Shown: one piece after another, positions 1,082 to 4,453 of the stretch | Position numbering within the stretch: position 1 is the stretch's first letter | How the letters are laid out: each line of letters starts with the position of its first letter | Virus record (IMG/VR): IMGVR_UViG_3300020169_000044 | Location: 1 to 37,229 of that record | Source: a virus | Length of the DNA: 37,229 nt | Strand: one strand, 5' to 3' | The notes under the pieces: model-generated | What the model was told of the DNA's origin: nothing | The model's input: the letters and a program-made list of their open reading frames with translations, nothing else | Database searches by the model: none | Made by a program: the position numbers and the translations under genes

Positions 1082-1112
1082 TTATCCGTGTTAATTCGTA
1101 TTTAGTCTGTAA
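1082..1112 (-). promoter_or_regulatory. Repeated 31-nt promoter-like element, copy A
   Basis: Coding-strand form TTACAGACTAAATACG, nine variable bases, GGATAA. One of six copies with identical spacing, each just upstream of a leftward gene start. The TAA inside ACTAAATACG is the stop codon of the preceding gene (1102-1314). The promoter role is inferred from position and repetition. Confidence 0.6.
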
Positions 1113-1314
1113 CATATCTTTCTTTGTTGCTATCGATTATTTCACCGATCTCATCTTGCATAGATATTATATCCATAGCAAGTAGTTGTATTTCTGCTAA
1201 GCCATTAACTTCATAAGTACTTAGATCATTGACTTCGTTTTCTTGTATAGCGTACACGCAGTCTTGCAACGCTTTTGCAGTATTCTCAAACCTGCAATAA
1301 CTCATATTTGGCAT
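1102..1314 (-). CDS. Conserved phage protein with MPNMSYCRFENT start, 70 aa
   Basis: The N-terminus MPNMSYCRFENTAKALQDC matches, from memory, a small family in many environmental phages (MPNMSYCRF.NT...L.DC); its function is unknown. The remainder is acidic and helical (LAMDIISMQDEIGEIIDSNKE). It lies directly downstream of the tRNA-Met, and its stop codon is embedded in promoter-like copy A, which places it at the end of one unit and abutting the next. Confidence 0.75.
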   Translation of the reverse strand: MPNMSYCRFENTAKALQDCVYAIQENEVNDLSTYEVNGLAEIQLLAMDIISMQDEIGEIIDSNKERYVTD

Positions 1315-1334
1315 ATTTAATTATTTAATATTAG

Positions 1335-1406
1335 TTGCGGGAGAAGGAATCGAACCTCCGACCTTTGGGTTATGAGCCCAACGAGCTACCTCTGCTCTAT
1401 CCCGCA
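1335..1406 (-). tRNA. tRNA-Met (CAT), initiator type
   Basis: All arms pair: acceptor TGCGGGA/TCCCGCA with discriminator A; D stem GAGC/GCTC with loop AGAGGTA; anticodon stem-loop TTGGG-CTCATAA-CCCAA; T arm GGAGG-TTCGATT-CCTTC. CCA is not encoded. Three consecutive G:C pairs beside the anticodon loop and an A11:U24 D-stem pair are hallmarks of bacterial initiator tRNA, and the D/anticodon region closely parallels E. coli tRNA-fMet. Position 1:72 is U:A rather than the usual C x A mismatch, a weak pair but not a classic one. An elongator or Ile2 identity is less likely. Confidence 0.88.
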
Positions 1407-1411
1407 TTTAG

Positions 1412-1495
1412 TGGAAGTGGGCGGAATCGAACCGCCGTTTGAGATTGCTACCGTTAATTTGTCGGTTCTAAAATCTCACTTACCTTATCACTCCC
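1412..1495 (-). ncRNA. Noncanonical tRNA-like element (acceptor plus T arm)
   Basis: A 7-bp acceptor helix GGGAGTG/CACTTCC (one G:U) plus an ideal T arm GGCGG-TTCGATT-CCGCC and an A discriminator give a clean tRNA top half of type II length (84 nt). The middle does not make normal D and anticodon arms. Its best structure is a perfect 7-bp helix TGAGATT/AATCTCA closing a 25-nt loop that holds an inner ACCG/CGGT hairpin. No credible anticodon loop with U33 is visible. It could be a degenerate tRNA, an intron-bearing or otherwise unusual tRNA, or a tRNA mimic. It lies 5 bases from tRNA-Met. Confidence 0.55.
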
Positions 1496-1500
1496 ATTTC

Positions 1501-1690
1501 GAGGCACCAGTTGTGGACAGGTAGTTAACTAGTATTGTCATTTATCCACACTTTCTGTTTCGTACTGGTACAGTAGAACGCCATTTTTACTTGCCATTAC
1601 ACTATTGTACCGATCTACCTAACGTGACCTGTATGCCGCCGCCTCGATTGCTAGCTATTCAGTTATGTGATAACATCTTGCGTATAAGAT
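1501..1690 (-). ncRNA. Highly structured non-coding stretch; candidate RNA gene
   Basis: There is no credible ORF between 1496 and 1725. Several long complementarities are visible: GAGGC 1501-1505 with 1641-1645; ACAGGT 1517-1522 with 1627-1632, or the competing AGGTAG 1519-1524 with 1615-1620; TGTGGA 1512-1517 with 1545-1550; a 10-bp helix 1567-1576 with 1602-1611; then two small tandem hairpins at 1662-1674 and 1675-1690. Overlapping alternatives (1517-1524) would permit a structural switch. The strand is inferred from the flanking leftward unit. The remainder up to 1725 shows nothing further. Confidence 0.4.
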
Positions 1691-1725
1691 CGCTATCGCT
1701 AATTAACCTACTCGTCTAGCTTCTT

Positions 1726-1914
1726 TTATTTTCTACGCCAAGCTTTGTGTACTTGATCACTTAGTTCTTGACTTACTACTTGTATTTCTAGAACTTGTTT
1801 GTTAGCAATAATAGGTATATAGCTATATTGCTGAGTTGAACTACAGTTTACACAATTTGAATAACCTAATGCTATTCTGCCTGCCGGTATTTTATTATTA
1901 CATTTGCATCTCAT
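1726..1914 (-). CDS. Small zinc-finger protein, DksA/TraR-like, 62 aa
   Basis: Four cysteines in CxC...CxxC arrangement (C3, C5, C21, C24) bracket the segment NNKIPAGRIALGYSN, which resembles the four-Cys zinc finger of DksA/TraR proteins (C..C...I...R........C..C). The DksA coiled coil is missing, so a direct RNA-polymerase secondary-channel function is not supported; a small nucleic-acid or protein-binding ribbon is more cautious. It is the first gene after promoter-like copy B (ATG 7 bases from GGATAA) and lies upstream of the RNA-rich stretch. Confidence 0.7.
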   Translation of the reverse strand: MRCKCNNKIPAGRIALGYSNCVNCSSTQQYSYIPIIANKQVLEIQVVSQELSDQVHKAWRRK

Positions 1915-1921
1915 ATTATTA

Positions 1922-1952
1922 TTATCCGTTTACAATCGTATTTAGTTTGTAA
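1922..1952 (-). promoter_or_regulatory. Repeated 31-nt promoter-like element, copy B
   Basis: TTACAAACTAAATACG, nine variable bases, GGATAA on the leftward strand. The final TAA is the stop codon of the 42-aa gene upstream, and the zinc-finger gene starts 7 bases downstream. Confidence 0.6.
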
Positions 1953-2050
1953 TTAAATCTTCTATAATATTCTACTTCAAATCTTTCCGCTTCATACTTA
2001 GTTATTTTAAGTAGTTTAATGTGCTTATGTCTTAGTTTTCTAGTCTTCAT
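1922..2050 (-). CDS. Small basic protein, 42 aa
   Basis: ATG at 2050, inside the last codons of the 67-aa gene (out of frame); stop at 1922-1924. The protein starts MKTRKLRHKHIKLLKITK and is strongly basic, consistent with nucleic-acid or ribosome contact. Its last ten residues (YKLNTIVNG region) are encoded by promoter-like copy B and are probably a by-product of that element. No family is recognised. It is the last gene of the unit led by copy C. Confidence 0.55.
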   Translation of the reverse strand: MKTRKLRHKHIKLLKITKYEAERFEVEYYRRFNYKLNTIVNG

Positions 2051-3444: not shown

Positions 3445-3608
3445 TATAAATACAGTGTTAGTAGTAAATTTAATACTGTTATACTTATGTTTATATAGTC
3501 ATTATAAGAATGATCAAACACTAAATGATTTTGTAAGTCAGTTTGAATAGTGTGTAATTCTAGTGCGTCATTTAATTCTGCACCTGTAAATACTTTTATT
3601 TCTTCCAT
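3414..3608 (-). CDS. Small tail-anchored membrane protein, 64 aa
   Basis: ATG at 3608. An acidic soluble N-terminus (about residues 1-38) is followed by one hydrophobic segment near residues 40-57 (INISITVLNLLLTLYLYY), so a C-terminal membrane anchor is predicted. The last residues (KLNTITNG) are encoded by promoter-like copy D, as in the 42-aa gene. No family is recognised; an early membrane effector is possible but unsupported. Confidence 0.66.
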   Translation of the reverse strand: MEEIKVFTGAELNDALELHTIQTDLQNHLVFDHSYNDYINISITVLNLLLTLYLYYKLNTITNG

Positions 3609-3609
3609 A

Positions 3610-3753
3610 TTATATTATATTAAATTTGTGAGTTTCTATTATACCAAGAACATCTGCTCTTGTTAGTTCATCTTTCATTTGTAGCAATATTGCCCAAGTG
3701 AGATCTATGTTTTTAGCATAGTGTGTATTTAAATTGTATATCATAGTTGACAT
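3610..3753 (-). CDS. Hypothetical protein, 47 aa
   Basis: The frame could extend to a TTG at 3801, but that extension runs through a tRNA-like T arm. I prefer ATG at 3753 (MSTMIYNLNTHYAKN) or 3744. The product is helical (TWAILLQMKDELTRADVLGIIETH). It ends one base before the 64-aa gene. No family is recognised. Confidence 0.55.
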   Translation of the reverse strand: MSTMIYNLNTHYAKNIDLTWAILLQMKDELTRADVLGIIETHKFNII

Positions 3754-3787
3754 GAGTGGAATCGAACCACTGCTAACCATTATGTCA
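3748..3787 (-). ncRNA. Truncated tRNA-like mini-helix
   Basis: Leftward strand: acceptor-like TGACAT/ATGTCA pair, a 10-nt linker, then a perfect T arm AGTGG-TTCGATT-CCACT. That is a 40-nt tRNA top half with no room for D or anticodon arms. It overlaps the likely start of the 47-aa gene. The upstream flank holds an ACTCAA/TTGAGT hairpin with a 7-nt loop (within 3788-3815), so a larger structured transcript is possible. It could equally be a tRNA remnant. Confidence 0.45.
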
Positions 3788-3866
3788 TTTGATAGACTCA
3801 ACTTTGTTTTGAGTGGAGAGAATCGTCGACGCCCACTTATGCTACTACTGTAAGAAATGAGTTATA

Positions 3867-4094
3867 TTATACTAACTCTTTATCTCTTAGTACTACTGGA
3901 ATATTATTAGTAGCAGTGTATGATTTGTACTTTATGAAGCAAGCCATTTTTTCTAGATTACTTTTCATAATGTTGAAAGCTTTGTCGTGATTGTACACAT
4001 ACTTTTTACCTTTTTTGTTAGTGAATTCGATAGTTACATTTTTACCTACTAGTGACTGTCTGATGACAAATCTTTTTGAAATTAAATTACTCAT
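3867..4094 (-). CDS. Hypothetical basic protein, 75 aa
   Basis: ATG at 4094, preceded by an A/T-only leader. The sequence has a basic beta-rich first half (RFVIRQSLVGKNVTIEFTNKK) and a helical middle (HDKAFNIMKSNLEKMACFI). No family is recognised. It lies 35 bases downstream of promoter-like copy E, the only copy with a longer gap to its gene. Confidence 0.7.
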   Translation of the reverse strand: MSNLISKRFVIRQSLVGKNVTIEFTNKKGKKYVYNHDKAFNIMKSNLEKMACFIKYKSYTATNNIPVVLRDKELV

Positions 4095-4129
4095 ATTATT
4101 ATATTTATTTATTATTAGTTACATTATTA

Positions 4130-4160
4130 TTATCCACATCATGTCGTATTTAGTTTGTAA
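4130..4160 (-). promoter_or_regulatory. Repeated 31-nt promoter-like element, copy E
   Basis: TTACAAACTAAATACG, nine bases, GGATAA. Unlike copies A-D it is not fused to a preceding stop codon and is followed by a 35-nt AT-rich leader containing an ATG-TAA minimal frame. Its upstream edge overlaps an 8-bp inverted repeat. Confidence 0.6.
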
Positions 4161-4190
4161 TGTGAGTGTGGAATTGTTTAGTTCACATTA
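4158..4190. repeat. 8-bp perfect inverted repeat beside promoter copy E
   Basis: TAATGTGA at 4158-4165 and TCACATTA at 4183-4190 are separated by 17 bases and lie at the upstream edge of copy E. The position suggests an operator or transcript hairpin. A further small hairpin GCAC-GCGA-GTGC is at 4207-4218. Confidence 0.4.
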
Positions 4191-4251
4191 GTGTGTAAGA
4201 GGTATGGCACGCGAGTGCTAATTAACTTACATTATATTTAATTAATTACTA

Positions 4252-4392
4252 TTATCTTACTCTGTCATACTTTGAAATTGGTATGAGTGCAATGAGTTCT
4301 CTCATGCGAGACTTTGACTCATCAGTTGGATTAAATGTAGAGTGAAATTCATCTAGCATTTGTAATTCTTTGTATATTTCTTTTAAATTCAT
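4252..4392 (-). CDS. Hypothetical protein, 46 aa; first leftward gene
   Basis: ATG at 4392, stop at 4252-4254. Helical and acidic N-terminus (LKEIYKELQMLDEFHSTFNP), more basic end. It is the outermost leftward gene, 30 bases downstream of promoter-like copy F, and alone in its unit. No family is recognised. Confidence 0.62.
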   Translation of the reverse strand: MNLKEIYKELQMLDEFHSTFNPTDESKSRMRELIALIPISKYDRVR

Positions 4393-4422
4393 ATTGTATA
4401 TTGTTTTTTACTTACATTTATA

Positions 4423-4453
4423 TTATCCACATGTAGTCGTATTTCTGTTGTAA
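4423..4453 (-). promoter_or_regulatory. Repeated 31-nt promoter-like element, copy F
   Basis: Leftward form TTACAACAGAAATACG, nine bases, GGATAA: two mismatches in the upstream block, same spacing. It is the most upstream copy, in the divergent control region, and like copy E is followed by an ATG-TAA minimal frame before the true start. Confidence 0.55.

What the first reader, a model, noticed from the sequence alone, without database searches (positions are those of the whole stretch)
1082..4453. Six copies of a fixed-architecture 31-nt promoter-like element organise the whole leftward arm
Read on the minus strand, TTACAAACTAAATACG-N9-GGATAA occurs at 1082, 1922, 2637, 3414, 4130 and 4423 (left ends). 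The two blocks are always separated by exactly nine variable bases, and the element always lies upstream of a leftward gene. Assigning genes to the copy upstream of them places every leftward gene in one of six units. GATAAT resembles a -10 box, and the upstream block has no match to a standard -35 at 17 bp spacing, so an activator-dependent or phage-modified polymerase (analogous to T4 middle promoters) is a reasonable inference.
Basis: partly seen in the sequence, partly recalled or inferred. Interest (0 to 1): 0.75.

Follow-up and report, generated by a model that had tools for sequence, protein, structure and literature searches.

The report
Phage promoter read by phage sigma
A group of uncultured viruses that probably infect flavobacteria starts its early genes from a repeated DNA switch that the bacterium's main promoter code does not match; the viruses also carry their own sigma factor (the protein that aims RNA polymerase), which probably reads that switch, and many of the resulting messages appear to begin directly at the start codon.

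Summary
Confirmed: six copies, all minus strand, 0.02 expected. Refined consensus TTACAAACTAAATACGA-N8-RGATAATA, with a purine 38 nt after the first base. Start codons pile up exactly there (88 ATGs at +1, 1 at -1, 0 at +2), placing GATAAT at -12..-7 and predicting many leaderless mRNAs; three of six window copies put ATG at +1. The -10 differs from the Flavobacterium host element TAHHTTTG. Motif-bearing phages encode a sigma70-family factor: 32 of 40 contigs; the other 8 end within 1 kb of the last copy, probably before sigma. Four relatives without the motif lack it. Its residues aligned to -12-reading positions are Gly and Arg in 80 of 80, fitting G at -12. Best explanation: host core polymerase plus phage sigma. 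The window itself does not reach the sigma gene. Unsettled: what reads the upstream block, which varies between genomes while sigma region 4.2 hardly changes. Binding and transcription were not tested.

The parts
1082..1112 (-). promoter element copy (TTACAGACTAAATACGA-N8-GGATAA); predicted +1 at 1074 = A of the ATG of ORF 841-1074
   Evidence: (score 45.5)
1922..1952 (-). promoter element copy; predicted +1 at 1914 = A of the ATG of ORF 1726-1914
   Evidence: (45.9)
2637..2667 (-). promoter element copy (3 mismatches); predicted +1 at 2629, ATG at 2627 (2-nt leader)
   Evidence: (40.4)
3414..3444 (-). promoter element copy; predicted +1 at 3406 = A of an ATG (37-aa ORF); the element also encodes the last residues and the TAA stop of the ORF upstream (3414-3608)
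   Evidence: (48.8)
4130..4160 (-). promoter element copy; predicted +1 at 4122 (28-nt leader to ATG 4094)
   Evidence: (43.6)
4423..4453 (-). promoter element copy (3 mismatches), nearest the divergence with the rightward arm; predicted +1 at 4415 (23-nt leader to ATG 4392)
   Evidence: (35.3)
841..1074 (-). 77-aa ORF, predicted leaderless; member of family F16 (found in 11 of 12 genomes)
   Evidence: 49% identity, 3e-23
1726..1914 (-). 62-aa Cys-containing ORF, predicted leaderless; member of family F23 (10 of 12 genomes)
   Evidence: 58%, 3e-24
2481..2627 (-). 48-aa ORF behind copy 2637
3293..3406 (-). 37-aa ORF behind copy 3414, predicted leaderless
3867..4094 (-). 75-aa ORF behind copy 4130; member of family F0 (12 of 12 genomes)
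   Evidence: 80%, 2e-42
4252..4392 (-). 46-aa ORF behind copy 4423

Best explanation
The element is the promoter of the early (leftward) arm of a family of probable flavobacterial podoviruses, related by terminase and portal to Elemovirus and more distantly to Callevirus. GATAATA is the -10 element at -12..-6, the conserved TTACAAACTAAATACGA lies at -38..-22, and transcription starts at the purine 38 nt downstream of the first T. It is most likely opened by the host core RNA polymerase carrying a phage-encoded sigma70-family factor of about 250 aa. In the long relatives that factor is encoded on the same strand, usually 2-3 kb behind the nearest promoter copy; in this contig that stretch is cut off. 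Many transcripts start at the A of the ATG itself (leaderless) or a few bases before it. SHOWN by sequence: the element, its recurrence, its strand bias, the ATG and purine signal at +1, the sigma gene in relatives and its co-occurrence.
For: Promoter: 118 IMG/VR stretches with 460 hits, 0 reversed-control. In 20 long contigs 164 matches on the main strand, 7 on the other, 8 for the reversed pattern. ATG opening a frame of at least 35 codons: 88 at +1 against 5 at -2, 1 at -1, 0 at +2. Purine at +1 in 235 of 247 sites that have no ATG at +1 or -2. GATAAT, six bases, +1 is canonical bacterial-holoenzyme spacing (recalled). Sigma: Pfam Sigma70_r2 and Sigma70_r4 (each just above its cut-off in one of three proteins, below it in the others); profile matches to FliA/SigA/RpoD over region 2 (best 5.2e-8); predicted fold matches sigma chains, region 2 over 97-99 residues at about 2 A. 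Co-occurrence: sigma in 19 of 20 plus 13 of 20 motif-bearing contigs; in the 8 misses the contig ends 182-980 bases beyond the last copy on the side where sigma would lie. From the other side, 68 of 80 sigma loci hold the motif: 315 sense, 3 antisense, 0 reversed. Elemo, MW202828, phi38:1 and Panino have neither. Residues aligned to Thermus SigA Q245 and N248 are G104 and R107 in 80 of 80, and -12 is G in 99% of sites. In contig G348 a copy lies 38 bases before the sigma ATG, i.e. sigma itself would start at +1.
Against: The upstream block differs between genomes in concert (TTACAAACTAAATACGA, TTACAAACAAAATACGA, wTCGAAAnnTAATACGA, aCACGGACTTAA, CCcccAACTAatTAC), while the sigma 4.2 helix YVRVS[EQ]LKK is nearly invariant. 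Sigma distance and block distance show no rank correlation (0.009, 56 loci), although sigma is 4.5 points more alike within than between block types (0 of 2000 permutations, 50 loci). Conserved -38..-22 is longer than a usual -35 box (recalled). Some Flavobacteriaceae chromosomes in which this sigma was not found hold perfect or near copies. Most copies precede the sigma gene, so what starts the first round is unexplained; host-type promoters were not enriched. Open-frame ATGs also occur upstream of +1: 26 at -15, 6 at -18, 7 at -6..-4; those at -15 sit in ATGGATAAT, which the motif itself favours. G at -12 was part of the search pattern (five mismatches allowed), so 99% is not unbiased. Motif and sigma could simply both be old traits of one lineage. 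The Pfam hits are marginal and the profile match covers region 2 only. Two of the 32 sigma hits (G006, G018) are broken by stop codons and one (G353) is cut at the contig end.
Confidence: 0.74

Rival explanations
1. T4-middle-like scheme: a phage or host DNA-binding activator reads the upstream block and recruits a holoenzyme with a host sigma; the phage sigma serves other promoters.
For: Upstream block varies per genome in concert while sigma 4.2 stays constant. Of 19 families tested, F33 (partial correlation 0.32), F30 (0.29) and F0 (0.20) track block distance better than sigma does (no correction for the number of families). Host chromosomes in which the sigma was not found carry copies.
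Against: The conserved GATAATA is not the host -7 element TAHHTTTG (passages of PMC6847099). No candidate activator was identified; the HTH gene beside sigma was not found in 2 of 12 genomes and its helix does not follow block type by eye. Partial correlations may only reflect gene exchange.
Confidence: 0.17
2. The element is read by a phage single-subunit (T7-like) or virion two-barrel RNA polymerase.
For: AAATACGA resembles the left part of the T7 promoter (recalled); the phages carry giant proteins of about 2,800-3,900 aa.
Against: A T7-like start would fall at GGATAA, but start codons and the purine point 12 nt further. PF00940 found nothing in 31 records, though the tool's control also found nothing. 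DxDxD motifs in the giant proteins of three motif-bearing genomes and two relatives are not shared and none is DxDGD. Pfam and PHROGs show no polymerase in the two relatives' giant proteins.
Confidence: 0.04
3. It is an ordinary host-type promoter or operator that the phage shares with its host.
For: Exact or near copies in some Flavobacteriaceae MAG chromosomes.
Against: Only 8 stretches in the 257 Gb of bacterial and archaeal genomes match the exact pattern, at least three of them phage-like (L300 lies on a contig with the sigma; L306 and L307 hold four copies each). In 299 Flavobacteriaceae genomes 15 matches with up to 3 mismatches in 13 genomes, against 31 for the reversed pattern.
Confidence: 0.03

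Closest known systems
phiEco32 / phage 7-11 sigma factors and their promoters (PMC4331800, passages read)
   Same: Phages with their own sigma factor and a low-copy, well conserved phage-specific promoter; the host core polymerase is redirected.
   Different: In 7-11 the sigma promoters are assigned to middle and late genes; here the copies lie on the early arm. Unrelated hosts; a long upstream block; leaderless starts.
T4 middle promoters (MotA/AsiA; recalled)
   Same: -10-like box plus a conserved upstream block of different sequence.
   Different: -10 is GATAAT with G at -12; block spans -38..-22; a sigma with regions 2 and 4 is encoded; MotA/AsiA homologues were not looked for.
Bacteroidota sigmaABfr promoters (PMC6847099, passages read)
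   Same: A at -11, T at -7, AT-rich surroundings; probable hosts are flavobacteria.
   Different: Host element is TAHHTTTG (T-12, A-11, T-8, T-7, T-6, G-5) and 87% of leaders with a probable promoter exceed 10 nt; here G-12, A-8, A-6 and many starts at +1.
P23-45 and crAss-like phi14:2 virion RNA polymerase promoters (PMC10770324, passages read; the phi14:2 paper is not held)
   Same: Phage-specific early promoters independent of the host sigma.
   Different: No two-barrel RNA polymerase signature found in five giant proteins; a sigma factor is found instead.

Membership tests
phage-encoded sigma70-family factor with cognate promoters | sigma regions 2 and 4 in a phage gene | tested here: met
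   region 2; region 4 rests on marginal Pfam hits and the predicted fold
phage-encoded sigma70-family factor with cognate promoters | repeated promoter with -10-like box at bacterial spacing to the start | tested here: met
   (start inferred from sequence, not mapped)
phage-encoded sigma70-family factor with cognate promoters | sigma and promoter occur together and are absent together | tested here: met
   (8 of 40 motif-bearing contigs without sigma are read as truncated)
phage-encoded sigma70-family factor with cognate promoters | sigma specificity residues covary with promoter variants | tested here: inconclusive
   G104/R107 fit G-12 but neither side varies; upstream block not explained by region 4.2
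phage-encoded sigma70-family factor with cognate promoters | sigma with core initiates at the element | not testable with these tools
   needs in vitro transcription
T4 middle promoters | MotA and AsiA homologues | not tested
   no search made
T4 middle promoters | TATAAT -10 | tested here: not met
   GATAAT, G at -12 in 99% of sites (pattern contained that G)
T7-like single-subunit RNAP promoters | T7-like RNAP gene (PF00940) | tested here: inconclusive
   0 of 31 records, but the control genomes also gave 0
Bacteroidota sigmaABfr promoter | TAHHTTTG at -12..-5 | tested here: not met
two-barrel virion RNAP (phi14:2, P23-45) | conserved DxDGD in a giant virion protein | tested here: not met
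   giant proteins of 3 motif-bearing genomes and 2 relatives; a motif test only

The most novel reading that the evidence does not exclude
A two-reader promoter code: an invariant GATAATA read by a conserved phage sigma (Arg107 on G-12) and a 17-bp upstream block read by a second, fast-changing factor, giving each phage lineage a private, largely leaderless early transcription programme; a few flavobacteria have the same promoter in front of their own genes and so could switch them on only when such a phage brings its sigma.
Probability: 0.15. Interest if true: 0.82.

Novelty: new variant of a known kind. Interest (0 to 1): 0.6.

Why it matters
It gives a predicted early promoter, a predicted start site and a predicted reader for a group of uncultured phages whose transcription I found nothing about. 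It predicts leaderless mRNAs in phages of a phylum where leaderless genes are reported as rare, and it offers a sigma with a simple -12 specificity change to test. The 41-column weight matrix marks such promoters with no reversed-control hits in the sets scanned.

Tried and rejected
De novo motif search upstream of early genes in relatives: elemo gave no convincing motif; MW202828 gave a different element, 8 near-identical copies of the palindrome GTGTCGTTAACGACAC. GATAATA-anchored clusters in the first 50 kb of Panino, phi38:1, elemo and MW202828 gave at most pairs that look like chance. The weight matrix at score 12 gave no hit in all of elemo, MW202828, Panino and phi38:1.

Search for the residue or protein reading the upstream block: mutual information between sigma columns and motif positions looks dominated by phylogeny; the HTH gene beside sigma does not follow block type by eye; distance-matrix tests favour F33, F30 and F0 weakly. 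None is convincing. Rows dropped: loci with fewer than 3 sites in the distance and type tests; the L230 cluster, judged spurious by eye, left out; loci with unclear type left out.

Host-type promoter (TTG-N17-22-TAnnTTTG) scan: 125 matches in 13 records on both strands against 120 in one mononucleotide shuffle; no enrichment at the arm start by eye. PADLOC on two host genes behind host copies gave only weak hits.

Seven of 80 sigma loci show neither motif nor a sense cluster (L235, L243, L256, L263, L273, L283, L288); by the match positions they hold at most about 2.4 kb upstream of sigma. The 80 loci are not all independent (L253 and L258 are one contig).
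Full report
OBSERVATION. The base after ACG is A in all six, so the variable stretch is eight bases, and the second block continues as RGATAATA.

WHERE IT LIES. The window is an IMG/VR fragment of 37,229 bases. Its rightward arm carries tail fibre, GroEL, GroES, endolysin, holin, terminase and portal genes. Terminase and portal are nearest, in the phage collection, to a 60,850-base spring-water phage MW202828 (63% for terminase), Maribacter phage Panino (portal 45%), Flavobacterium elemo phages (terminase 44%) and Cellulophaga phages such as phi38:1 (portal 34%). 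The probable hosts are therefore flavobacteria. The leftward arm consists of small ORFs and a tRNA-Met.

IT RECURS. With up to five mismatches these hold 460 copies (436 unique) and no copy of the reversed pattern. In 20 long contigs (50-71 kb) a looser pattern gives 164 matches on the main strand, 7 on the other and 8 for the reversed control. In 12 contigs placed against the sigma gene, copies lie upstream of it in 10 at score 18, usually with 2.3-3.0 kb to the nearest one (38 bases in G348, 5-8 kb in G347 and G350); in G013 and G010 further copies lie at the far end of the linear contig, which would be upstream if the genome is circular.

IT IS A PROMOTER. Aligning the unique copies shows a position 38 nt after the first T that is A or G in 98%, and still in 235 of 247 when sites with ATG at +1 or -2 are left out. 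ATGs that open a frame of at least 35 codons occur 88 times exactly there, 5 times two bases earlier, once one base earlier, never one base later (415 sites, window included); 92 other ATGs at -2 do not open such a frame. Against this, open-frame ATGs also occur at -15 (26), -18 (6) and -6..-4 (7); those at -15 are ATGGATAAT, which the motif favours by itself. The peak at +1 is what a transcription start at that base with leaderless mRNAs would give, and it puts GATAAT at -12..-7. In the window, copies 1082, 1922 and 3414 have ATG at +1, copy 2637 at +3, and copies 4130 and 4423 have 28- and 23-nt leaders. In 281 of 692 unique elements an upstream ORF ends inside the element.

NOT THE HOST CODE. 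The Flavobacterium -7 element is TAHHTTTG with T-12, A-11, T-8, T-7, T-6, G-5, and 87% of leaders with a probable promoter exceed 10 nt (passages of PMC6847099); leaderless genes were detected in 1 of 37 Bacteroidetes/Chlorobi genomes (passages of PMC3160421). Our element has G-12, A-8, A-6. Across the genome collection only 8 stretches match the exact pattern.

A PHAGE SIGMA FACTOR. Reading the long relatives showed a gene of about 250 aa with sigma70 regions 2 and 4 (Pfam scores marginal). A profile of 35 members matches FliA, SigA and RpoD chains over region 2, and the predicted fold (mean pLDDT 78, pTM 0.46) aligns to sigma chains: region 2 over 97-99 residues at about 2 A, whole-chain alignments at Z 11-13 but with rmsd near 15, meaning domain orientation is not predicted. 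It was found in 19 of 20 and 13 of 20 motif-bearing contigs; in the other 8 the contig ends 182-980 bases beyond the last copy on the side where sigma would lie, which fits truncation but does not prove it. In two of the 32 (G006, G018) the gene is broken by stops, and in one (G353) it is cut by the contig end. Conversely 68 of 80 sigma loci contain the motif, 315 sense, 3 antisense, 0 reversed; five more carry variant blocks, and the remaining seven hold at most about 2.4 kb upstream of sigma. Elemo, MW202828, phi38:1 and Panino have neither motif nor sigma over their whole records. The window's own phage is expected to have the sigma, but its contig ends about 1 kb beyond the last copy.

HOW IT MAY READ THE DNA. 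Positions aligned to Thermus SigA Q245 and N248 (equivalent to E. coli Q437 and T440, which by recalled work contact -12) are Gly104 and Arg107 in 80 of 80 sequences, and -12 is G in 99% of sites (that G was in the pattern). Arginine facing guanine would explain the one difference from TATAAT. This is inference.

WHAT DOES NOT FIT. The upstream block changes between genomes, all copies of a genome together (between-genome variance 2 to 4 times permuted at -38..-29, -26..-23 and -13; the GATAAT columns were partly fixed by the anchoring). Found without assuming the block's sequence, 63 of 80 loci have a sense cluster of at least two GATAATW sites sharing a block, one of which (L230) looks spurious, against 1 of 80 antisense, where there are fewer such sites. 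Yet the region 4.2 helix hardly varies. Either other parts of sigma or a second protein reads it. Sigma identity is 4.5 points higher within block types, but the rank correlation of distances is nil.

HOST COPIES. MAG chromosomes G041, G042 (two copies) and G127 carry the element with a similar leader in front of a small secreted-protein gene; one G042 copy has TATAATA. Six of 299 Flavobacteriaceae genomes have a match to the G127 protein. The phage sigma was not found in these host assemblies. Whether the copies are phage-derived, host-regulated or infection-triggered is open.

NOVELTY. Phage sigma factors with their own promoters are known (phiEco32, 7-11; passages of PMC4331800). No paper in the held library contains this sequence, and searches for this phage group, phage sigma factors and promoters brought up no description of it (listings). 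I file it as a new variant: early-arm promoters, long upstream block, G-12, leaderless starts.

Noticed in passing
window 33374-33403 and 36126-36158 (+): A second conserved element, roughly TTATTAATTTTATATTATATTATATTATG ending in the start codon, precedes the gene between portal and putative capsid gene and the gene after it in relatives (each of 12 genomes has one or two late-strand matches with up to 2 mismatches; 1 early-strand match in all; the window has one match at 36142 and a looser one by eye at 33374); perhaps a late promoter or start signal.
   Followed up: partly
L206/L207 (MW202828) early arm: 8 near-identical copies of the palindrome GTGTCGTTAACGACAC upstream of early genes in a relative that lacks this motif and sigma.
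   Followed up: no
L311, L312, L315, L325 (host MAG chromosomes): Perfect or near copies of the phage element with a similar leader upstream of a small secreted-protein gene.
   Followed up: partly
L309 about 1501 onward: One host copy stands upstream of a gene that looks TerB-like by eye; PADLOC gives only a weak hit PDC-S48.
   Followed up: partly
window 1409-1495 (-): tmRNA-like match below Rfam's threshold (38.4 against 47 bits) next to tRNA-Met.
   Followed up: no
window 3867-4094 (-): Member (80% identity) of a 72-103 aa protein family found in 12 of 12 long relatives, 16 copies, often near the start of the early arm; function unknown.
   Followed up: partly
upstream of 20 of 774 elements in related loci, e.g. 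L091, L141, L282: TGTATAGC, sometimes in tandem, within 60 bases upstream of the element.
   Followed up: no
related elements: 92 of 415 elements have an ATG at -2 that does not open a frame of 35 codons, many of them ATGTAA by eye.
   Followed up: no
G348 contig, element 38 bases before the sigma gene: The sigma gene itself appears to start at +1 of a variant copy, which would make it self-activating and leaderless there.
   Followed up: no
G370, 129,537-base record: Contains two sigma genes about 62 kb apart and the motif; may be two genomes joined.
   Followed up: no
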